From Pseudobacteriovorax antillogorgiicola (lineage in GTDB: Bacteria; Bdellovibrionota_B; Oligoflexia; Oligoflexales; Oligoflexaceae): a DNA stretch of 64,000 nucleotides. The notes under the pieces are model-generated. The model made no database searches and was not told the DNA's origin. It was given only the letters and a program-made list of their open reading frames with translations. How positions within the stretch are numbered: position 1 is the stretch's first letter; each line of letters opens with the position of its first letter. Made by a program: the position numbers and the translations under genes. The stretch is from contig NZ_FWZT01000015.1 of assembly GCF_900177345.1 (NCBI RefSeq), positions 62,001 through 126,000 of the forward strand. Reading direction: 5' to 3'. Positions 870 through 49,170 of the stretch are shown one piece after another.

Positions 870-1886
870 TCAATTAAAAGTGCAGTTATTGACCTCAAAG
901 GCCTGGCTATCGCCATTGTCAAAGGTAATCGTGCCAATACTATCTTCAAACTCTACTGTGAAGCTGCTTGTCGGCTCCGTTGCAGCATCACTCTCATAGA
1001 CAAACCCTTGCATGGTACCCGAGATTGGAGAACAGGAATCGTTTTCAAAGCTAAGGTTATCGTAGCGGGTGATTAGTCGGGATTCATCATCAAATGTGGA
1101 ACGTACATCACCACTACGGATGACAAAGCTAGCGAGTCGATTGCTATCTGAAAAACTCTTGGCAATAATCAACGGAGTAGCTTCATCGACTTGCATAGTA
1201 TGTTGGTACGAGCCGGTGGTATCTGTAGAATCGTAGCTAACACTATGGGCGATGCTATAAGACATCGTCTCTACGATTATCCCTGTTGCTTCGCGGCTCA
1301 TTTGAATGGTGCGGTTACCGTTGAGTTCCACTGTTTTGATGAGGAGGACCTCCTCATCTGATAGCCGGGTGATTGTCTTATCGCGCCGCGATTCTTGCTG
1401 GATAGAAAGGCTCAGGCTATCGATCCCTGACCATTGCACTCGGGCGCGACGAGAATCGCTGCTACAGGCAATCTCTTGATTGGGAATGACCCAAGTTGCA
1501 GTGGAGCTGCGGCTGAGTGATTCCTCTACAGTTCTCCGCCGCGCACCGATTCCAACATCGTAGCTAACCGTTCCGCTTGTGGACTTAACGACAACCGTTT
1601 CGCTGCCAGAATCATCGCAGGAGAAGGTGATGTCGAAGCCTGTGTTTTGGGCCAAACTTAAGAGAGATGCACTACTTCGTGAATCATAGGTGTCGGTAAC
1701 AGCTGATAGGGCTTCATTATAGTGATCGCTGGCTACCAATGTGACAACATCTGGATCATCAGCTACCTTAGTTGTTCCGGTGCTACTATCTGGATTGGTT
1801 GGGTTGGCAGGGTTGCCCACCTCAACACCGCAGCTAGCAAAGAACAAGATCATCGATAAGGTGATCAATACAATTTGGATCATCAC
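870..1886 (-). CDS. Lipoprotein, paralogue of the lipoprotein ending at 2795
   Basis: Function unknown. The N-terminus is a short signal peptide ending in the lipobox FASC (Cys about residue 19), so the mature protein is probably lipid-anchored. The rest is Ser/Thr-rich and predicted beta-rich, with paired cysteines. It aligns by eye along most of its length with the product at 2795-3859: both share a CxxDG/S start of the conserved part, an IACSS or VLCDS segment followed by W.G/DxxSLSLS, and a C-terminal SCSPxSG or ECTPTSG motif leading into a VEFxDxxGT-like strand. Its ATG overlaps the stop of the upstream regulator by 4 bp (ATGA), so the two are probably translationally coupled. Real gene: high confidence; role: unknown. 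Confidence 0.75.
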   Translation of the reverse strand: MMIQIVLITLSMILFFASCGVEVGNPANPTNPDSSTGTTKVADDPDVVTLVASDHYNEALSAVTDTYDSRSSASLLSLAQNTGFDITFSCDDSGSETVVVKSTSGTVSYDVGIGARRRTVEESLSRSSTATWVIPNQEIACSSDSRRARVQWSGIDSLSLSIQQESRRDKTITRLSDEEVLLIKTVELNGNRTIQMSREATGIIVETMSYSIAHSVSYDSTDTTGSYQHTMQVDEATPLIIAKSFSDSNRLASFVIRSGDVRSTFDDESRLITRYDNLSFENDSCSPISGTMQGFVYESDAATEPTSSFTVEFEDSIGTITFDNGDSQAFEVNNCTFN

Positions 1887-2755
1887 TTATCTCCTTTGTT
1901 CAAATCGGTTGTTGGAAAGAGCTGGATATTCATCTGATAGACTTCGTCGCATTGATTGCGCTTTTGGTCGGCAAGAGCTAAAATTTTCTTCCTAAATACG
2001 CTAATCTCTTCCTTCAGGCTTGGCAGTAATGTCATCGGAATGGAAATGCTGACTGAACTGATATCTCGCTCTTGGTCTGGAACAGATGTGATGGATTCCT
2101 TGCCAAGATCGATCATCCGTTGATGATATCGAGTTACGGCGATAGAGGCGACTTCATCTCCGGTAGTGACGCGAAGCTTTGTCGGTTCCAGGCGACCCGT
2201 TTCAGGGTTGTCTTCGATCAGCTTCAAACTTTTGAGAAGCTGCAAGCTCTTTCGAGCTTGCTCTGGGCGAATATTGGGCTTGACCGCCTTTGCAATATAG
2301 CTAGGGTCTGCATTAAAGTCAGCCATGAATGTCATTTGATAGATGATCACATGAAACCATTCGCTAAAAAATTCAAGTTGGGACTGACTTTCAGGTTGTG
2401 AAAGAACCTTGGACTTGATTTGCAAAAGCTCCTGAAATAGGTTTTCGCGGCTTTGAGGTTGGCGCGCATTTTGATACTTCACTAAATTTACAAAGTACTT
2501 CTTTTCAGGCCCTGATAATTGTAAGGCTGCGATAACCTTGCTCGCAGCCTTACTGGTAAGGGGACGTTTGCCTTTTATTATGAGGTGAAGGACATTGGTG
2601 CGAGAAAAACCAAGATCTTCAGAAAACCGGATATAGGAGTAACGGTTTAGTTTTGACTTAACAATTTGGTAGACGGCGTCTAAATACTGCCGATAGTCTA
2701 AGTAATCCAGAGGGGAAACTTTTTGTTTCAGCATGTCCATAAGATCTTGATTCAT
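1883..2755 (-). CDS. TIGR02147-family HTH regulator
   Basis: Predicted DNA-binding regulator of the TIGR02147 type, a family common in Fibrobacter and Bdellovibrio relatives. The N-terminus has the typical DYLDYRQYLDAVY opening followed by a Cro/XRE-like helix-turn-helix (about residues 40-75, RFSEDLGFSRTNVLHLI, then KGKRPLTSKAASKV). The middle carries a winged-helix-like segment (ARKSLQLLKSLKLIEDNPETGRL), and the C-terminus the family's helical end (LKEEISVFRKKILALAD). It sits between two paralogous lipoproteins and overlaps the downstream one by 4 bp, which suggests it controls this set. The ATG at 2755 follows AGGAG in the minus-strand leader. Its ligand and target sites are not visible. 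Confidence 0.85.
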   Translation of the reverse strand: MNQDLMDMLKQKVSPLDYLDYRQYLDAVYQIVKSKLNRYSYIRFSEDLGFSRTNVLHLIIKGKRPLTSKAASKVIAALQLSGPEKKYFVNLVKYQNARQPQSRENLFQELLQIKSKVLSQPESQSQLEFFSEWFHVIIYQMTFMADFNADPSYIAKAVKPNIRPEQARKSLQLLKSLKLIEDNPETGRLEPTKLRVTTGDEVASIAVTRYHQRMIDLGKESITSVPDQERDISSVSISIPMTLLPSLKEEISVFRKKILALADQKRNQCDEVYQMNIQLFPTTDLNKGDK

Positions 2756-39836: not shown

Positions 39837-40825
39837 GACATAGCTGGCTTGTCTACCTGGCGCCTGGGATTGTATTTCTAGGAACCGATGCCCTTGCCAA
39901 ACCCGATTTCAAGCTTGATGCCTATGTGGCATCGGAGATGGAGGTCGAGAGCTTTAAGAATGGCGAATCAAGCCATGAAGGTAAGGTAGAGATTAAGAGC
40001 AAGCGAAAGAACGGCGTCCGCGCTGAGTTCGGTGTTAGATTTCGCAGTCAGGAAAATGATGTTTTGATCCGTGAGGCTCTGGTGAATAAAAAGCTGAGCG
40101 GAGATCGTCGCCTCGAATTTGGCTACGGCAAAAAGCGATTCGGCTTGGAATACGGCTACGGAAAAACATCGCGCTCCACCATTGATCGGAGCATTTTATA
40201 TCGTCGTTTGGAAGTCTTCACCTATGCTGGACGCGAGTCTATGATTCGTTATTACAAGAAAATGGACTCGGAAGCCGGTACCACTGGTTATTCCCTCGAA
40301 GCAGGCCATTCTGAGGCTCAAAATACCAGCACAATCGGCTCTGTTCAGACTCCTTTAAATAATTATTGGAGCTTTGGCTACTGGCTACAACTTCAGTCCG
40401 ATCACATAGACGATGGCCAACAATTTGTTTGGGCTACAATGCCGACTCTTGCCTTTGAAGATGGACAGCATCTGTTCCAGTGGGAAATCTTAGCCGGTAT
40501 CGACCCTGAAGAAACAGAACTTCGTAAGACTGTCGGAGATAATGACCGCGTTCTATTTGCTGGTACAAAACTGCACTTTGAGCAGAAGAGACCTTTGGAA
40601 GACGATGAGTGGTGGCAGTGGATTGTGCAGTCAGCCTTTATCTACCACGACTTGGACCTCATGGGATTCAATACCGTTTCCTTACTCGCGGGAATCAACT
40701 ATGGATTCGACCCTATTCGTCTTGCTTTCAATGTTGAAGGTATCGGCTCTACGACTAGAATCGATGTAAATGATCGAAATTTTACCGAAAGTCGCGCTAA
40801 GATTGAGTTGTTGTATGAATTCTAA
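39833..40825 (+). CDS. Outer-membrane beta-barrel protein
   Basis: 330 residues. Signal peptide cleaved after ALA (about residue 22), then an antiparallel barrel with alternating strands, Arg/Glu pairs and Tyr/Trp girdles; it ends in EFRAKIELLYEF-like strand with terminal Phe, the usual recognition signal for barrel assembly. Probably a porin-like channel of 12-16 strands. ATG overlaps the preceding stop by 4 bp (ATGA), and the CotH gene starts inside its 3' end. Substrate unknown. Confidence 0.75.
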   Translation: MRHSWLVYLAPGIVFLGTDALAKPDFKLDAYVASEMEVESFKNGESSHEGKVEIKSKRKNGVRAEFGVRFRSQENDVLIREALVNKKLSGDRRLEFGYGKKRFGLEYGYGKTSRSTIDRSILYRRLEVFTYAGRESMIRYYKKMDSEAGTTGYSLEAGHSEAQNTSTIGSVQTPLNNYWSFGYWLQLQSDHIDDGQQFVWATMPTLAFEDGQHLFQWEILAGIDPEETELRKTVGDNDRVLFAGTKLHFEQKRPLEDDEWWQWIVQSAFIYHDLDLMGFNTVSLLAGINYGFDPIRLAFNVEGIGSTTRIDVNDRNFTESRAKIELLYEF

Positions 40826-41933
40826 TTCGATAGTTTGGCTATTCATCGCTATTCTCTCCGTGACGTCTTGCGGAAATGAGAAGAGTTTGCCAGATTATGG
40901 CTTGCGCAAGGTTGAGATTGAAATTGACGATGAAACCCTCGGGGAACTTAATAATTCCTACCAGGCCAAAAGACCATTCGCTGCTTTGGTTACCATCGAT
41001 GGTAGGGAGTATCGCACTGATCTAAACTATGCTGGGAAATCCACCCTTGATGCTTTCAAGAAGAGCTTCCAGCTTAGTTTCAAGGATCAGAGAACTTTTA
41101 AAGGCCGTAGCTCGTTAAGGCTAAGTTCTCAGTATGTTGATAATAGTTTACTCCGCTCTCTCATTGGTTTTAAAACGTTTTCAGAAGCAGGAGTCATAAG
41201 CCCCGATGTTGAACCCGCCGTGGTCTATCTGAACGGCCGGTATCAGGGGCTCTATCATATGATCGAACCAGTGGATGAGGAATTTTTTTCCGTCCGGTCA
41301 CTTGAGGTGAAAGACTTATATAAGGCTAAGTTCGCCAATGCTGGGTTCGACCGTGATTTTATAGATCGTCTCGGAGATGCTTACTCAGTTCGTTTGGATC
41401 CAAAAGATATATCACCACTTCGGTATCTGTGGGAGCAGGCGCTGTCTAACGACGCCGTGCGAGCTAATGACAATATTGAAAAAGTTTTGGACGTTGATCA
41501 GTATCTAAGATATGTGGCAGCTGCAGTCGCCATGAATCATTGGGATGGCTTCGACAATAACTATTTTCTTGCTCGCCTTCGAGATGGTCGGTTTCGTATG
41601 ATCCCTTGGGATCTTGATCGAGTATTTGAAGATCGAGCTTATGAGGATGGTGGCATCTGGGGGAAAAACGGTCTCACCAATCAGATCTTACAGAACGTTG
41701 AGTACCGGCAAGTTTATATTTCGCACTTAGAAAGGGTTATCTCACAGCTAGAGGAGCGTGATCTGGAATCAGAGATCGATAGCTGGACCAAGAACCTACG
41801 CTCAGCTTATGAAGATGATCCCATCATCTCGTCGAGGGCCCCCATTGATGAGAGTCACAGTGAACTTAGGAATAATATCCAAGTATGGCTAGCGACCTTG
41901 AAAAGCCAGTTGGCAGCTGAAAAAGCGATTTAA
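40815..41933 (+). CDS. CotH-family kinase-like lipoprotein
   Basis: 372 residues. Signal peptide with lipobox VTSC (Cys about residue 20). CotH domain with NYAGKSTLDAFKKSF, a lysine and backbone pattern of the kinase N-lobe, and the catalytic stretch AMNHWDGFDNNYFLAR followed by RMIPWDLDRVF, which matches the CotH DxxxGNxYxY and IPWDLD motifs. CotH proteins are atypical protein kinases known from spore coats and surface proteins. Here it is predicted to act in the periplasm or on the surface. ATG 40815 lies 11 bp inside the barrel gene; only a weak ribosome site precedes it. Confidence 0.85.
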   Translation: MNSNSIVWLFIAILSVTSCGNEKSLPDYGLRKVEIEIDDETLGELNNSYQAKRPFAALVTIDGREYRTDLNYAGKSTLDAFKKSFQLSFKDQRTFKGRSSLRLSSQYVDNSLLRSLIGFKTFSEAGVISPDVEPAVVYLNGRYQGLYHMIEPVDEEFFSVRSLEVKDLYKAKFANAGFDRDFIDRLGDAYSVRLDPKDISPLRYLWEQALSNDAVRANDNIEKVLDVDQYLRYVAAAVAMNHWDGFDNNYFLARLRDGRFRMIPWDLDRVFEDRAYEDGGIWGKNGLTNQILQNVEYRQVYISHLERVISQLEERDLESEIDSWTKNLRSAYEDDPIISSRAPIDESHSELRNNIQVWLATLKSQLAAEKAI

Positions 41934-42371: not shown

Positions 42372-44456
42372 ATGATGAGCAACTCTCTGGAAAGAGGACT
42401 ATGGAGCCTCTTGCTTTCGTGGATCTTATTACTGGTTTCTTGTCATGAAGAAGTTCGTTTCAACAGCAATGGACGGGTTCAGAGCTACGATCAAAGCCTT
42501 GTAAAGGAATATCAATTCCAAGCAGGAACGATTCGATCAGACTCCATCTACTTCGAGCCGAAAAAACTGTCGTTCGACCATAGAATTGTGCTTGAGCAGA
42601 TTCCCAATGGCTATGCGAAAACCTTTCAGATGGTCAGGCCAATCCAGAAAGAGGAATTTATTCAAGGTGGCCAAGGGCGATCTCAAAAAGACGACTTTGC
42701 CCTCATTGAGTCTGGCTATCTCGACCTTCTAATTGTCATCGACAATTCGTCTAGCATGGAGGCGTTTCAGCTCCAGCTACAAAAACGCTTTAAAAACTTG
42801 CTTAGTAACATCTCCAATACCAATTGGCAGATAGCGGTGGCGACCACTTCGAGTAGCTGTTTGCGCTCTGCCCTTGATGGAACCAAAATATTGAAGCGGA
42901 CTGATTTTGATATATCCTCAGCCACTGCTCAAAGGCGATTTGAACAGCTCATTTCAGCTGGTGTTAACGGCAGCACAGTAGAGAAAGGTATCTTGACTGC
43001 GACTGAGGCTTTGCAAGGAGATTGTGGTGATACTCGCTTCCCATGGACGCGAGCAGATTCGCAGAAAGCAGTGCTCATCGTATCTGATGAAAAAAACTGT
43101 GGTAGTGCTAGCAACGAAGGCTGTGTCGCGGAGGAATATAGTTCCGCAGATTACTTTCTAAGTCGATCACCGAGAAATACTAGGGTTTATGGATTGCTTC
43201 TTTTCCAAGATGATTTTGCCGCCTGTCCTAACTCTGGAGGATATGACAATCAATATCCGAGCGAATATATGCGCTTGATTCAAGAAACAGGTGGACTGGC
43301 TGGGGAAATCTGTCAAGCCGACTATAGCGAAGTTCTGGAAACCATTTCTAGCCATGTGAGCAAGGATATCAAAAGGCGTTTTTCACTCACCTTCCAGCCT
43401 GATCCAGGCACTCTTAAAGTATATTTGGATGGGGAGCTACTAACTGATGGTTACGTTCTTATTGGTCAAGAGCTGCGCTTGATGATCACACCAAGCTTGG
43501 AGAGCGAAATGCTCTTTGTCGACTACACCTATGGCAGGCAGTCCATGCGTCACTACTTTGATTTAAGCAAACCCATCGATCCTGAAACCTTGGAAGTCGT
43601 GGTCGACCAAGAAATCAAATCACCAGACGACTTTTATATCATGGAAGGCAAGACTGTTGTGTTTCGTAATGTGCCAGCGGCCAGTTCGAAATTGAAGTTT
43701 TCTTATCGCCAGGATGGATTATTGAAGAAGACATTTCCTTTAACTTGGCCATCGGATGCTCTCATTCAAAGCGTTCGCGTGAACGGTAACGAGTTGCCAG
43801 TGGAAATTGATTATGATCGCCAATGGCTGAAATTCAACGATCCTCCGATGGATGGAGCTGAGGTGAGCCTTGAGTATCAGCAAGCCAATGCCAAGATCCT
43901 CGACTACCCGATTCCGCAGTATCAAAATAGGCATATCCAGTCCATCGAAATTATAGATGCAGAAACCGCTGAACCTATCGACTTCCAAATTGTAAACAGC
44001 TATATCAAATTCAAGCCTGAGGAGGTTTGGCCAGGTCGTGAATTGGTGGCCAGCATCCAATTATTACCAAGAGAGGATGATAGTCTTTTCCAGTTCACCG
44101 TGCCTCCAACCGTAATCCCGGATTCTATGGTTGTGACAACCCTCGATGGTGAGGATTGTGCCGATAGCTTGGATATCCACAACGGCGATGTCAAGCTAAG
44201 CTGCGATGAGTCTATTGATGGTGGCTTGGCTGTGAGTTATCGCTACATCGAAAAGTATACCAATCAGTTTGTGGTGGATCAGGAGGACGACCCCCAAAGC
44301 ATCTGGAGAGTGTTCATCGACGGTGTGGAGTACACCAAGTTTCAAAGGCTTGATGGGAATCTCATTATTCCCCCGGAAGACTTGGAGCCAGGAAGTTCGG
44401 TGGCGATTCAGATAACCCCACCTATTAGGGTAACAGCAGTTTCAAAAAAATATTGA
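42372..44456 (+). CDS. VWA-domain lipoprotein
   Basis: 694 residues. Signal peptide with lipobox LVSC (Cys about residue 24). A von Willebrand factor A domain occupies about residues 115-330, with the metal-ion site in LIVIDNSSSM (DxSxS) and an additional Asp in LIVSDEKNCG. Four repeats of a beta module of about 60 residues follow (for example LKVYLDGELLTDGYVL and SVRVNGNELPVEIDYDRQ), giving a stalk-like C-terminus. Probably a surface or periplasmic adhesion or protein-binding lipoprotein. Single gene with AT-rich flanks. GGGGGAG precedes the ATG. Confidence 0.8.
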   Translation: MMSNSLERGLWSLLLSWILLLVSCHEEVRFNSNGRVQSYDQSLVKEYQFQAGTIRSDSIYFEPKKLSFDHRIVLEQIPNGYAKTFQMVRPIQKEEFIQGGQGRSQKDDFALIESGYLDLLIVIDNSSSMEAFQLQLQKRFKNLLSNISNTNWQIAVATTSSSCLRSALDGTKILKRTDFDISSATAQRRFEQLISAGVNGSTVEKGILTATEALQGDCGDTRFPWTRADSQKAVLIVSDEKNCGSASNEGCVAEEYSSADYFLSRSPRNTRVYGLLLFQDDFAACPNSGGYDNQYPSEYMRLIQETGGLAGEICQADYSEVLETISSHVSKDIKRRFSLTFQPDPGTLKVYLDGELLTDGYVLIGQELRLMITPSLESEMLFVDYTYGRQSMRHYFDLSKPIDPETLEVVVDQEIKSPDDFYIMEGKTVVFRNVPAASSKLKFSYRQDGLLKKTFPLTWPSDALIQSVRVNGNELPVEIDYDRQWLKFNDPPMDGAEVSLEYQQANAKILDYPIPQYQNRHIQSIEIIDAETAEPIDFQIVNSYIKFKPEEVWPGRELVASIQLLPREDDSLFQFTVPPTVIPDSMVVTTLDGEDCADSLDIHNGDVKLSCDESIDGGLAVSYRYIEKYTNQFVVDQEDDPQSIWRVFIDGVEYTKFQRLDGNLIIPPEDLEPGSSVAIQITPPIRVTAVSKKY

Positions 44457-44601: not shown

Positions 44602-44877
44602 TTAGCGATCGAGTTTTGAAAGATCTTCGTCTGCCCTCTCGGATATCAAGAAGACTTTTTCATCACCTCCAAAGGCTTCAAATTTCTTGGTCCTTATTGA
44701 AAGAGAAGATCTGTCAACAGAGAGTCGTTCATCTCTTAAGTTGATCTCACCTCCAAGAATCGCTTGCCGCAAAACTTTTCGATATTGAGAAGGGTTCAAT
44801 GCTTCCTTCATAACTGTTCCTTGCCCGCTATAAGCAGGAAGACTGAAACCAACGAGTGCAAGAATTAGTAATCTCAT
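44602..44877 (-). CDS. Small exported protein coupled to a TIGR02147-like regulator
   Basis: 91 residues with a signal peptide (MRLLILALVGFSLPAYSGQ, cleavage after about residue 18). The mature part has no Cys and no recognised domain, with a basic middle (RDERLSVDRSSLSIRTKK). Its ATG overlaps the regulator's stop by 4 bp (ATGA). The same regulator-then-exported-protein overlap is seen at 1883-1886, so the arrangement is probably meaningful. Confidence 0.7.
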   Translation of the reverse strand: MRLLILALVGFSLPAYSGQGTVMKEALNPSQYRKVLRQAILGGEINLRDERLSVDRSSLSIRTKKFEAFGGDEKVFLISERADEDLSKLDR

Positions 44878-45662
44878 TTTTTCACCTCATCATCACCAAA
44901 GTTTTCTTTATCGAAGAGATTAAATACAGCGGACACGTAAAAGGGAATGTTGCCCTGATAACGGGGATCATGCTTAATTCGTGATATTTCTTGTGAAGCT
45001 CTATAGATTGCCTTCTTTACCTCAGATAGACCTTCCATGTTTAATGACTCTGTATGTCTTACAATCGCAGCACCACTTGTGCCTAAAAGCCCTGAGTCAA
45101 ACCTATCGAGGTCGAATGATATCCCCCTCATAACTGTCTTTGAATCCCATAGAGCAAACTCTTTTTCTTTGTTCGAGATCCTACCATCTGTGTCTATCTG
45201 CAGATGATCCTCTTCCAGTAACTCGTCGACAGAGTCCAGTCCTGCTAGGCCTCGCAATCTCTCAATCTGCTTTCTTGTGGTTCCCTCATTCGTAGAGGCT
45301 AGGTTGTAAATCAAGTCCCCTACTTCTGTTGTAAGGTGTCTCGTGAGACTATCTGAGTTGAGATGCACTGAACCATCGCTGTCTGGTTGATATGTCGATT
45401 TGAGGATGGAGCCCATCTCTGGAAAGTGCTTCTCAATAAACGCTGCTAGGTCACTTTTGTTCAACATGACTGCCATAATAGCAACGAGATTTTCGAACTG
45501 AGGCTTAGCTTCTCCCTGAATGAATCGCGTGACAGTACTTCTTGATACATTAGCCCTTTTGGCTATCTGCGAGAAAGCTGACTTGCACTTATAGCGTAGT
45601 AAGTACTCATCATAGATAGTTTGAATTTCTGCTACCATATTATCCGAAAGAAAAGAATCCAT
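44874..45662 (-). CDS. TIGR02147-like HTH regulator
   Basis: 262 residues. N-terminal XRE-like helix-turn-helix (about residues 28-60; FSQIAKRANVSRSTVTRFIQGEAKP), a middle winged-helix-like part (RKQIERLRGLAGLDSVDELLEEDHLQIDTDGRISN), and a C-terminal helical part with EVKKAIYRASQEISRI and LFD, matching the end of TIGR02147-type regulators such as the one at 1883-2755. Divergent from the exported-protein/CPBP-protease genes starting at 45873, so it likely controls them and the coupled small gene. ATG 45662 has GAGG with 7-nt spacing. Confidence 0.7.
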   Translation of the reverse strand: MDSFLSDNMVAEIQTIYDEYLLRYKCKSAFSQIAKRANVSRSTVTRFIQGEAKPQFENLVAIMAVMLNKSDLAAFIEKHFPEMGSILKSTYQPDSDGSVHLNSDSLTRHLTTEVGDLIYNLASTNEGTTRKQIERLRGLAGLDSVDELLEEDHLQIDTDGRISNKEKEFALWDSKTVMRGISFDLDRFDSGLLGTSGAAIVRHTESLNMEGLSEVKKAIYRASQEISRIKHDPRYQGNIPFYVSAVFNLFDKENFGDDEVKK

Positions 45663-45872
45663 CCAAATGCCTCGTATTCCTTAGTCAATTACCCAGTTGG
45701 AACGTAGCACACGTAATTACTCACTGTGAACAGGTTTTTCGCCCCACGGTGCAGATTTTTCTTGACCAGGCTCGTTGACTCTAGGGCTTGAAAACCTGTA
45801 CTCACAGTTTCCAGTTGTTGACTCGATGAATGTTGAGTTGTAATTTGCACCCGAATTGGGAGACTACGAAGT

Positions 45873-46490
45873 ATGTTGAAGAAGTTGACTCTAGCTAGCC
45901 TTTTGTTTAGCCTTGCTCCAACCGCATCAGCAATGGAGACAATTGTCATAACGGCTCCAAAACCTGGACCATCGATGGGCGGCACTGGCCTGGGTCGCGG
46001 TGGGTCATCTAGCGGAAGCGGTAGCGCAAGCTCTGGATCGAATGGCAAATCGAAGAGTGAGAAGGCCAAGGCTAGGTCAAACCGAAATAAGACTCATAAG
46101 AAAAAAGCAAAAAAAATCGGCGAAATCAATAGCGGTTTCATTGATGTGGTCCTCACTGCTATTGATGAGTTTGCAGCTATCTTCCAAGATCGAGGCGAAG
46201 GCTACTCGGCAAGTATCGAGGAGAAAATTGTAACTGATAAAGACGGTAACATACTTGAGAAGAAAAAGACGAAACAGTGCAAAGTTGATAGCTACCGAGG
46301 CAGTAACCCATGCTCAATGATTCGTATCCAAAACATTCGGTCTGGTGACTCTGACAAGAAGTATAAAGTGTCCATTCACCTCTTTTATGTGAATTCCCGC
46401 GGTCAAGAGCGAACTTTAACGTCCCATGAATCTGGCGTTTCATTCGAAGTCGACTCTCTCGATGAACTATATGACCTCGATATCATTTAA
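45873..46490 (+). CDS. Small exported Gly/Ser-rich protein with TonB-box-like mature N-terminus
   Basis: 205 residues. Signal peptide MLKKLTLASLLFSLAPTASA; predicted cleavage gives a mature start METIVITAPKP, which matches the TonB-box pattern (D/E-T-hydrophobic-V-hydrophobic-T-A) at the position it takes in TonB-dependent receptors. Then a Gly/Ser-rich flexible linker (about residues 34-60), a strongly basic stretch (KSEKAKARSNRNKTHKKKAKK) and a C-terminal beta-rich domain of about 110 residues with two Cys (QCKVDSYRGSNPC). No barrel and no plug domain are present. First gene of an apparent three-gene set with a CPBP protease. Export is clear; any TonB link is inference. Confidence 0.7.
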   Translation: MLKKLTLASLLFSLAPTASAMETIVITAPKPGPSMGGTGLGRGGSSSGSGSASSGSNGKSKSEKAKARSNRNKTHKKKAKKIGEINSGFIDVVLTAIDEFAAIFQDRGEGYSASIEEKIVTDKDGNILEKKKTKQCKVDSYRGSNPCSMIRIQNIRSGDSDKKYKVSIHLFYVNSRGQERTLTSHESGVSFEVDSLDELYDLDII

Positions 46491-46507
46491 CCGGAGGTAG
46501 CTGTAGA

Positions 46508-47251
46508 ATGAGACTTGCCTTTGAAATAGTTGTCGTAGGCTTACTGTGCTTATCGGCACCGCTGTTTTACCATTGGCAAGTCGATATTCCTCATTGGCTA
46601 AGTCTTGCCGTTGTTCTATCAGCTTACTTGGTTCTCAATAGAGGATTTCCTAAACTCGGTAGTACTAGTCTCTCTGGTCTCAATAAAGCTACCTCGCTAA
46701 GCATCCTCTTATCGATAGTCATCATGCTCTTATTTGCCTCGAAAGAAGCAATTTATGTTGACGGCATCGAGATTCAGTACACACACAAGCTCAGTCTGGA
46801 GCCTCCGTTAAAGATTATATATACAATATTTACCTCTGCTCTAATGGAGGAAATACTCTTTAGAGTAATGCTGATTGGCCTGTTAGCAAAGCTGAACTTC
46901 AGATTCAAGATACTTATTTCCTCTATAGTATTTACGCTTTCCCATGTTTCCCTATACCAGCTCGAAATCCCCCTCATACATAGGGCCGAGACAGCAAGTC
47001 AGTTGCTTTTGTCTGGCCTACTTCTTGGGATGCTATATAAAAGATACTCACTTTCAACAGCGGTAGTCTTTCACATTCTTTACAACAGCTACACGGCATT
47101 TCTAAGGCCAGTCCTTGTTAACCTAGAAAGACTCCAGCTCGGCCTGCTGCTGTGCCTTGGAGTCATCTATTCGCTGATAGTTGTAGGTAGGGAGATCAAG
47201 ATCATCGTCAACAATCGACTAATCGAAAAACACTGGAGTTTAGATACATGA
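46508..47251 (+). CDS. CPBP-family intramembrane metalloprotease
   Basis: 247 residues, six to eight membrane segments. The CPBP/CAAX-protease motifs are present: EEILFR (EExxxR) near residue 113, FTLSHVSLY with a His, and a C-terminal VVFHILYN with the second His. These residues make up the membrane-embedded active site in the family (Rce1/Abi type), which matures lipoproteins, prenylated proteins, bacteriocins or pheromone precursors. GGAGG 10 bp before the ATG. It overlaps the next gene by 4 bp (ATGA), and lies 17 bp after the exported-protein gene. Confidence 0.88.
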   Translation: MRLAFEIVVVGLLCLSAPLFYHWQVDIPHWLSLAVVLSAYLVLNRGFPKLGSTSLSGLNKATSLSILLSIVIMLLFASKEAIYVDGIEIQYTHKLSLEPPLKIIYTIFTSALMEEILFRVMLIGLLAKLNFRFKILISSIVFTLSHVSLYQLEIPLIHRAETASQLLLSGLLLGMLYKRYSLSTAVVFHILYNSYTAFLRPVLVNLERLQLGLLLCLGVIYSLIVVGREIKIIVNNRLIEKHWSLDT

Positions 47252-47799
47252 CAAAACTGCTAGCTTATCTAGCTATGGGTCTGCTACTAACTGGTTTCAG
47301 TAGTTCCTACCACTATACAAAATCTTCTCCTGGCGAATACATTGAAGCCAAGAGAGTTGACGGTGTATGGTCGGTAAGGACGAAAAAAGATGGTGAGTTT
47401 CGTCCAAGTACCAAAGAAGAGGTCGATAGGTTGATCCTAGAAATGGATCTTCGAGTTTCAAGTAATGCCCAGAGGAGAATAGAGAAACATGATGCTGTTA
47501 AAGACATCTTAGCTGATTCTCCTGCGTCAACGACGAGAACAGAAATGATGACCTCCTTACTTGTGAGGAAATCCTTCTCCAATGCAGTCGTCATCGATGT
47601 TCTAGATAATCTAGACGAGGTTGGCGCCTCGATTCATCGTGCAGAGTTTCTCGCCAAAATTATAGATAACACTACTGACCTTATAGTCATGAGAAGGATT
47701 ATCGATAGTATTGACGAAGTTTCTCACATCACTGGCAGAGAAGAACTATTGAAAGCCTTATCTAGAAAGCTACTGGCGCTATCCGAGCAAAAACTATAG
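47248..47799 (+). CDS. Exported helical protein of the CPBP cassette
   Basis: 183 residues. Signal peptide about 20 residues (MTKLLAYLAMGLLLTGFSSS) without a lipobox Cys. The mature part begins with a basic beta-like stretch (YIEAKRVDGVWSVRTKKDGE) and is then helical, with repeated pairs of helices (VVIDVLDNLDEVGASIHRAEF, VMRRIIDSIDEVSHITGREEL) like short HEAT-type or bundle repeats. No family recognised. ATG overlaps the protease stop by 4 bp, so the three genes are likely co-translated. Confidence 0.7.
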   Translation: MTKLLAYLAMGLLLTGFSSSYHYTKSSPGEYIEAKRVDGVWSVRTKKDGEFRPSTKEEVDRLILEMDLRVSSNAQRRIEKHDAVKDILADSPASTTRTEMMTSLLVRKSFSNAVVIDVLDNLDEVGASIHRAEFLAKIIDNTTDLIVMRRIIDSIDEVSHITGREELLKALSRKLLALSEQKL

Positions 47800-48213
47800 C
47801 CTTGGTCTCTATGCACCACTAATAGTCAAACTCTGCTGGATCAAGAGCTAGACGATCAAGGTAGTCTTTTAGGAACGCCAATTATAGTCTAGCAAACAAA
47901 CGCAAGTGCCCAGAGATTGGACACTCATTCGTCACAGCCTTGTGCGGCTGTGGCTTTCACTTATCATTTCAAGTCCTTGAAAACGCTCGTATTCCCTCGA
48001 AAAATGGAACTAATCTTGCAATATCAAAGGGTTGGCAGAGTTCGAATCTTGTCGTGAGTATGATTCCAAGAGGCTTTTTTGCCTTAGGAAGCAGGGAATT
48101 AGACTATTGTTTGCTGCTAAATTCTTGGAATGACCCTCATTACATGAATTTCAAAGCTCGGCCTTAGAAATTTCCGAAACGTAGTCAAATTTCTTAGGTA
48201 AAAATAAATCGTT
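47800..48213. other. 414-bp intergenic region with possible tRNA relic and RNA-like inverted repeats
   Basis: No credible gene. It holds a tRNA-like 3' fragment (48026-48054) and an inverted repeat ATTCCAAGA (48063-48071)/TCTTGGAAT (48123-48131). Inside lie AGGC-TTTTTT-GCCT (48071-48084) and AGCAG/CTGCT (48090-48094, 48114-48118), together a possible three-way junction. Nothing else recognised. Confidence 0.4.
48026..48054 (+). other. Possible degenerate tRNA 3' half (serine-type)
   Basis: AAAGGGTTGGCAGAGTTCGAATCTTGTCG resembles the variable-loop and T-arm part of tRNA-Ser(UGA): the CAGAGTTCGAATCT core equals the T-arm of many bacterial tRNAs and AAAGGGTT is seen in E. coli serT. Upstream, CTTGAAAACG (about 47973-47982) is like that tRNA's anticodon loop, but the interval is too long and no D-arm or acceptor stem can be drawn. 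The T-stem is degraded. At best a relic, such as an old attachment site. Confidence 0.25.
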
Positions 48214-49170
48214 ATGCAGATTGGACCTTATATATTGCAGGAGAAAATTGGCGAAGGTGCGCTGGGAGAAGTGTTTCGCGCTCTCAACACCCTCGACTCG
48301 TCGCAGGTAGCGATTAAAAAGCTCCATGCCCGTCTGGAAAACGATCCAAAGTTCATTGGTATCTTGCAGCATGAAATGCTGGTCGCTTCTAAGCTTGATC
48401 ACCCAAACCTGCTCAAGATGCTCGACTTTAAAGCTGAGCCACCCCATGTATACTTTGTCACAAAGTTTGTCGATGGCTGGCCTCTCAAGGGTTTGTTAAA
48501 AAAGGTCGGGCGGATACCTCCATTGGTTGCATTGGCAATTGTCTACGAGGTTCTCAAGGCTCTAGACTACCTTCACCTTCGGGACATGATCCATGCCGAT
48601 CTTTCGTCAGGAAATATTTTGTTGAACCGGGACGGGTCTCTCGTGATTTCTGACTATGGTCTCGTGAGCGACCTAGCTACGGATCGCTTCAAGTATGAAC
48701 TTGTGGGGACTCCTGGCTACTACTCCCCGGAGCATGTGACGAGCCAGGCTATTGGCCCATATTCAGATCTTTACGTGGTAGGCCTTCATCTCATTGAGAT
48801 GATCAATGGCGTCAAGCCCATTCTTCTCGGCAGATCACGAGACCATGCGACTGAGATCTTCAAGTTAATGAACCAATATCAGCCAAGCTTAAAGTGTGAT
48901 TCAAGAACCCTATCAGACGCCCTTCAGCAATTGCTTCATGGCTGCTTGCAGATCAAGCCACAGAATCGATGGCCTCAAGCTGAGCATATTGCAGAAATTA
49001 TTGTGAAGATTCTGAAGATTTTTGGCATCAACAACCCTGTTCTTGCTATAAGGCAATATCTATACGACTGCCGATTCACTTCGATGTGTATCGAGTACGA
49101 ACAGCCGATCTATACTGGCAATGTCCCATACTCAGTAGAAGACCTGACTCTCTTAAGTAATAGCATTTAA
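48214..49170 (+). CDS. Ser/Thr protein kinase (Hanks type), soluble
   Basis: 318 residues. Kinase domain from residue 1 to about 265: GEGALGEVFRA (glycine loop), VAIKKL with the ATP-binding Lys, HADLSSGNIL in place of HRDLKPxN, SDYGLV where DFG is usual, and GTPGYYSPEH. The catalytic Asp in HxD is retained. The C-terminal 50 residues are a short helical tail with no membrane segment, so it probably acts in the cytoplasm. Ribosome site is weak. The short gap to the lipoprotein at 49212 suggests co-transcription. Target unknown. Confidence 0.85.
   Translation: MQIGPYILQEKIGEGALGEVFRALNTLDSSQVAIKKLHARLENDPKFIGILQHEMLVASKLDHPNLLKMLDFKAEPPHVYFVTKFVDGWPLKGLLKKVGRIPPLVALAIVYEVLKALDYLHLRDMIHADLSSGNILLNRDGSLVISDYGLVSDLATDRFKYELVGTPGYYSPEHVTSQAIGPYSDLYVVGLHLIEMINGVKPILLGRSRDHATEIFKLMNQYQPSLKCDSRTLSDALQQLLHGCLQIKPQNRWPQAEHIAEIIVKILKIFGINNPVLAIRQYLYDCRFTSMCIEYEQPIYTGNVPYSVEDLTLLSNSI

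What the first reader, a model, noticed from the sequence alone, without database searches (positions are those of the whole stretch)
44602..47799. Accessory cassette: divergent regulator with small exported protein versus exported protein, CPBP protease and exported helical protein
Five genes, three with signal peptides, one intramembrane protease with EExxxR and His motifs, and one TIGR02147-like regulator transcribed in the opposite direction. The two plus-strand downstream genes overlap by 4 bp. CPBP proteases often process or confer immunity to peptides. The set could be a peptide maturation, signalling or competition system.
Basis: partly seen in the sequence, partly recalled or inferred. 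Interest (0 to 1): 0.65.

Follow-up and report, generated by a model that had tools for sequence, protein, structure and literature searches.

The report
Switch-plus-secreted-protein cassette with membrane protease
A marine relative of predatory bacteria carries a recurring gene pair (a DNA-binding switch plus a small exported protein, about 17 copies in this genome), and this copy sits back to back with an operon for an exported protein that may plug into the TonB energy machinery and a membrane protease, a set found again in a related genus.

Summary
In detail: five genes at 44602-47799, three exported, a CPBP protease with its three motifs, two ATGA overlaps, a 210-bp divergent gap. Two levels were found. 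(1) Regulator plus small exported protein is a repeated module: 17 regulator matches in this genome, 14 in a Pseudobacteriovorax MAG. The regulators are a distant sister family of DUF4423/TIGR02147. 70 of 79 full-length copies are followed at once by an exported ORF, most often with a 4-nt overlap, and most partners in the two main genomes have a Gly-rich motif just after the signal peptide. (2) Regulator, small protein, Gly/Ser-rich exported protein and CPBP recur twice in the MAG, once co-directional and once divergent as here. Single-sequence searches had missed this. The helical gene is not in the conserved core. The Gly/Ser-rich proteins begin with a TonB-box-like segment of the kind seen in these genomes' own TonB-dependent receptors. 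The cargo hangs on two separate regulator clades, so switch and cargo are modular. Best reading: a regulated, secreted, TonB-engaging effector with a CPBP partner (immunity or processing). Linkage is well supported; function is inference.

The parts
44602..44877 (-). small exported partner protein, 91 aa (signal peptide, then SGQGTVM)
   Evidence: ORF; ATGA overlap with regulator; same position and GQTTVM motif in the orthologous cassette L155
44809..44826 (-). Gly-containing motif GQGTVM directly after the signal peptide of the small protein
   Evidence: read from the sequence; counterparts in the partner proteins of other copies; Gly enrichment 86% against 7%
44874..45662 (-). DUF4423-related transcriptional regulator, 262 aa: XRE-type HTH, winged-HTH-like middle, C-terminal helices
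45663..45872 (.). divergent intergenic region, presumed control region
   Evidence: no inverted repeat above shuffles; no sigma-70 site above chance
45873..46490 (+). Gly/Ser/Lys-rich exported protein, 205 aa, with two Cys in the C-terminal part
   Evidence: homologues L155:9124-9762 (z 12-14) and L175:6538-7146 (E=1.3e-24 to a two-row profile)
45933..45965 (+). TonB-box-like segment METIVITAPKP at the mature N-terminus
   Evidence: same type as in TonB-dependent receptors of the same genomes
46508..47251 (+). CPBP (Rce1-like) membrane protease, 247 aa
   Evidence: PF02517; E114 E115 R119, F142, H146, H189 and N193 invariant among four cassette CPBPs
47248..47799 (+). helical exported protein, 183 aa; accessory of this copy
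   Evidence: 4-nt overlap; absent from the other two cassettes; one lipoprotein relative elsewhere in G001
47931..47954 (+). terminator-like stem-loop after the plus-strand operon
   Evidence: pattern scan, (6 found, 3.1 expected in the region, so weak)

Best explanation
The locus is a switch module with a cargo operon. The switch is a DUF4423-related regulator, encoded with a 4-nt overlap with its own small exported partner (shown: linkage, overlap, export signal; inferred: that the partner reports an envelope or extracellular state to the regulator, or is its first target). The switch controls the divergent operon (inferred from the shared 210-bp region and from the recurrence of the set). 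The cargo is an exported protein whose mature N-terminus carries a TonB-box-like segment, followed by a flexible linker and a region with two cysteines, together with a CPBP membrane protease. Most likely the exported protein is a secreted, TonB-engaging effector used against related cells in the manner of a TonB-dependent bacteriocin, and the CPBP protease protects the producer or processes the effector (inferred). The helical exported protein is an accessory of this copy.
For: Three cassettes with the same four genes in two genera and two orientations. The Gly/Ser protein was found only beside such regulator pairs in 56 genomes. CPBP within 3 kb of a regulator: 3 against 0.18 expected, P about 8e-4. 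TonB-box-like N-termini ETIVITAPK, EHIEVVGAP, EHIEVPGTR match the type in TonB-dependent receptors of the same genomes, e.g. ERIQVTGSR, ERVEVTGTR, EKIEIVGSR. Cargo sits on two separate regulator clades while the two G001 cargo proteins are closest to each other (38% against 24%), so cargo moves as a unit. Divergent exported operons are over-represented next to these regulators, 6 of 30 against 6 of 276, p=3e-4. CPBP proteins are known in bacteriocin loci (PMC9298176, which cites reports of immunity).
Against: No killing domain is recognised in the Gly/Ser protein and its model is poor (pLDDT 50). It has a Sec signal peptide, which colicins lack (general knowledge). The TonB-box match is a short pattern defined after seeing the sequences. 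No operator or promoter stands out. In the one CAAX protease case read here, SilX, a role in immunity was argued against.
Confidence: 0.36

Rival explanations
1. Autocrine or pheromone signalling: the small exported protein is processed, perhaps by the CPBP protease, to a Gly-rich peptide that is taken back and binds the regulator of the overlapping gene, as with PapR/PlcR or AimP/AimR; the divergent operon is the output.
For: Receptor-then-exported-partner gene order with overlap in 70 of 79 copies; strong divergence of pairs with a retained Gly motif; some pairs lie in phage-like surroundings; SilX is a CAAX protease implicated in signal-peptide processing.
Against: The regulator model has no TPR domain and no full-length PDB match. 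Mature partners are 60-100 aa or more, not short peptides. Most pairs have no CPBP gene beside them.
Confidence: 0.22
2. Own-cell TonB or envelope control: the Gly/Ser protein stays in the periplasm, engages the cell's own TonB and modulates receptor-driven uptake; the CPBP protease is part of its turnover or sensing. No competition is involved.
For: Sec signal plus TonB-box-like segment places it where TonB is; many TonB-dependent receptors in the genome, 34 plug matches.
Against: Scattered presence (three copies in 56 genomes) and fast divergence (24% identity between genera) suit an accessory effector better than core physiology.
Confidence: 0.2
3. The regulator pair and the Gly/Ser-CPBP operon are merely neighbours; only the pair is a functional unit.
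For: Most copies of the pair have no such operon beside them.
Against: The Gly/Ser protein was found three times and each time directly beside such a pair, on two regulator clades and in two orientations.
Confidence: 0.1

Closest known systems
TIGR02147 / DUF4423 (PF14394) regulators of Bdellovibrionota-like bacteria
   Same: End-to-end profile homology (prob 97.1, E=5e-11); also mostly followed by a gene for an exported protein
   Different: Below the Pfam and NCBIfam cut-offs; partners are small soluble Gly-motif proteins rather than CGxxxGNP lipoproteins
CPBP / Rce1-like membrane proteases, as bacteriocin immunity proteins or as SilX (PMC9298176)
   Same: PF02517 member with EExxxR, FxxxH and HxxxN motifs, encoded beside small exported proteins
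   Different: Gram-negative setting; partner is a Gly/Ser-rich protein with a TonB-box-like end, not a class II bacteriocin or SilCR
TonB-dependent bacteriocins (colicin type)
   Same: N-terminal TonB-box-like segment, flexible Gly-rich linker, C-terminal part; adjacent membrane protein that could give immunity
   Different: Sec signal peptide; no known killing domain; protease-type rather than classical immunity protein
RRNPP receptor/pheromone pairs (PlcR/PapR, AimR/AimP)
   Same: Regulator gene directly followed by a gene for a small exported partner, in many diverged copies, some in phage-like surroundings
   Different: No TPR fold in the regulator model; partner much longer than a pheromone precursor

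Membership tests
TIGR02147/DUF4423 regulators | match to PF14394 or TIGR02147 at the curated cut-off | tested here: not met
   no TIGR02147 hit; 3 of 12 paralogues reach PF14394 only at E of about 0.016 or worse
TIGR02147/DUF4423 regulators | homology over the whole length | tested here: met
   hhalign prob 97.1, E=5e-11, 216 columns
CPBP/Rce1-like protease | PF02517 at cut-off and EExxxR, FxxxH, HxxxN motifs | tested here: met
   52.6 bits against 22.4; motif residues invariant in four
CPBP/Rce1-like protease | proteolytic activity | not testable with these tools
   needs an assay
Myxosortase / Mrt C-terminal sorting proteases | equivalog score of the protease and a C-terminal sorting tail on the partner | tested here: not met
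   MrtS 28.7 bits of 130, MrtJ 26.3 of 75; none of the exported proteins ends in a membrane tail
RRNPP peptide receptors | TPR peptide-binding domain behind the HTH | tested here: not met
   confident model, PDB matches confined to HTH parts; Rgg2 and ComR only at E of about 0.7 or worse with TM about 0.2
TonB-dependent bacteriocin | TonB box near the N-terminus | tested here: inconclusive
   sequence resemblance to the genomes' own TonB boxes; binding not tested; pattern defined after the fact
TonB-dependent bacteriocin | recognisable cytotoxic domain | tested here: not met
   no family
TonB-dependent bacteriocin | kills cells that lack the cognate immunity gene | not testable with these tools
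   needs an assay

The most novel reading that the evidence does not exclude
Regulator plus exported-partner pairs form a large, undescribed class of one-component switches in these Gram-negative bacteria, in which each regulator senses the state of its own exported partner (or a Gly-rich peptide from it) and drives a private cargo; the window copy drives a TonB-box effector with a CPBP partner, and other copies ride on prophages.
Probability: 0.2. Interest if true: 0.82.

Novelty: new variant of a known kind. Interest (0 to 1): 0.6.

Why it matters
DUF4423/TIGR02147-type regulators are abundant in these bacteria yet hardly studied: the library holds no paper with the term TIGR02147 and one with DUF4423. 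That they and a divergent sister family are mostly encoded directly before, and often overlapping, an exported protein with a short conserved motif at its mature N-terminus gives a direct handle on what they sense. The window's cassette adds a defined, testable output: a TonB-box-like exported protein with a membrane protease.

Tried and rejected
Single-sequence searches suggested that the operon had no relatives; that was wrong, and the relatives came from reading the neighbourhood of the orthologous regulator. Accidental neighbourhood was rejected because of the two further cassettes. C-terminal sorting protease (myxosortase type) was rejected by score and by lack of tails. RRNPP membership was rejected by fold. 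An operator palindrome in the divergent region was sought; the best inverted repeat is no better than shuffles (168 of 1000). No sigma-70-type promoter was found in the gap and the region total is not above chance. Scans of GTDB contigs with the regulator, viral contigs and plasmids found nothing new; the GTDB scan with the cargo found only the two G001 copies. The Gly/Ser protein model from three sequences is too poor to search with. Foldseek of the regulator against viral models gave weak matches, the strongest of which are HTH regulators. The other CPBP loci of the two genomes were checked for the same exported neighbour; none of the seven that the script displayed has one, and two (L215, L219) it did not display.

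Full report
What is there. Regulator and small exported gene overlap by ATGA, as do CPBP and helical gene. CPBP is a clear PF02517 member with its motifs. The small exported and Gly/Ser proteins match no database family; the helical one has only sub-cut-off hits.

The left half is a module of its own. A search of the window's genome with the regulator gave 12 matches, itself included. A profile gave 17 matches here, 14 in G001 (the MAG Pseudobacteriovorax sp. DT_89, identified through), 4-6 in each of five genomes of a third genus, and matches in 28 of 56 genomes. I fetched the loci and read downstream. Of 79 full-length regulators with enough sequence, 70 are followed within -45 to +75 nt by an ORF with a signal-peptide-like N-terminus, 30 of them at exactly -4. 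In gene calls of the two main genomes 29 of 32 regulators are followed by such a gene of at most 220 aa, against 23 of 384 other genes (Fisher 4e-27). The partners have a Gly-rich stretch directly after the signal peptide: 86% have three or more Gly in an 8-residue window, against 7% of other exported proteins. Otherwise they are very diverged and match no Pfam model. Export was judged by a hydrophobicity rule, not SignalP.

What the regulator is. AlphaFold gives a confident model (pLDDT 90.6): XRE-type HTH, a winged-HTH-like middle and C-terminal helices. PDB matches are confined to HTH parts and none is significant. DUF4423 proper has 31 matches in this genome, and many of those genes too are followed by exported proteins, often lipoproteins whose mature end starts CGxxxGNP.

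The right half is conserved after all. The regulator's orthologue in G001 (L155; 43% identity; tree support 100/100) is followed by its small exported protein (GQTTVM against GQGTVM), then by an exported protein alignable to the window's Gly/Ser protein (shuffle z 12-14) and a CPBP gene, all in one direction. A profile of the two Gly/Ser proteins found a third copy at E=1.3e-24, again beside a regulator pair and in the divergent layout of the window, followed by two CPBP genes (L175). The L175 regulator belongs to another clade (with L011 and L012, 98/87), while the two G001 cargo proteins are closest to each other (38% against 24% to the window): cargo and switch have been re-matched. CPBP genes near these regulators exceed chance (3 regulators against 0.18 expected, P about 8e-4). 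The helical gene is specific to the window copy; its only relative is a lipoprotein elsewhere in G001.

What the Gly/Ser protein may do. After the signal peptide the three proteins contain METIVITAPKP, VDDDVEHIEVVGAPI and VDDDIEHIEVPGTRI. TonB-dependent receptors of the same genomes carry ERIQVTGSRI, ERVEVTGTRI, EKIEIVGSRI and the like before the plug. Among the exported proteins of the gene calls scanned, the pattern was matched only by the two G001 cargo proteins and one further ORF of L175; the window protein was not scanned there because the caller chose an internal start. The pattern was defined after the fact. A Gly/Ser/Lys linker and a part with two conserved cysteines follow; AF2 suggests a long helix and strands, but at pLDDT 50.

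Mechanism. Shown: linkage, export signals, overlaps, recurrence, re-matching of cargo and switch. Inferred: control of the divergent operon, engagement of TonB, use against other cells, immunity or processing by CPBP. A Gram-positive precedent for a CAAX protease in signal-peptide processing next to a bacteriocin cluster is SilX (PMC9298176), where the deletion mutant argued against a role in immunity. Own-cell TonB control and peptide signalling remain live rivals.

Verdict. The scores reflect a strong genomic pattern with an unproven function.

Noticed in passing
window 870-2755 (-); also L125-L170: DUF4423 proper: a second, larger set of regulators (31 matches in this genome) mostly followed by exported proteins, many of them lipoproteins starting CGxExGNP, CGVEVGNP or CGTYIGNP; the window holds one such pair. 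I know of no description of this motif.
   Followed up: partly
L124:4399-5507, L117:6383-7389, L179:6040-7118, L186:859-1961: Several regulator/exported-protein pairs lie in phage-like surroundings (RecT and exonuclease VIII; phage-type DNA methyltransferase), so pairs travel on mobile elements.
   Followed up: partly
L118:7227-8818, L119:8191-10231, L186:2467-5481: Other pairs sit beside divergent operons of two to four orphan exported proteins, the same layout as in the window with different cargo.
   Followed up: partly
L175:9368-9580 (+): After the third cassette, a 70-aa exported ORF with another TonB-box-like end (EVERVTVFGARSDRF), close to the contig end.
   Followed up: no
L116:6139-6861: Only full-length regulator of the own genome without an exported partner directly downstream; perhaps a lost partner.
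   Followed up: no
window 40770-41933, 42372-44456 and 48214-49170 (+): Neighbours: CotH-type kinase lipoprotein, VWA protein weakly like the NCBIfam 'MIDAS family adhesin', and a Ser/Thr protein kinase.
   Followed up: no
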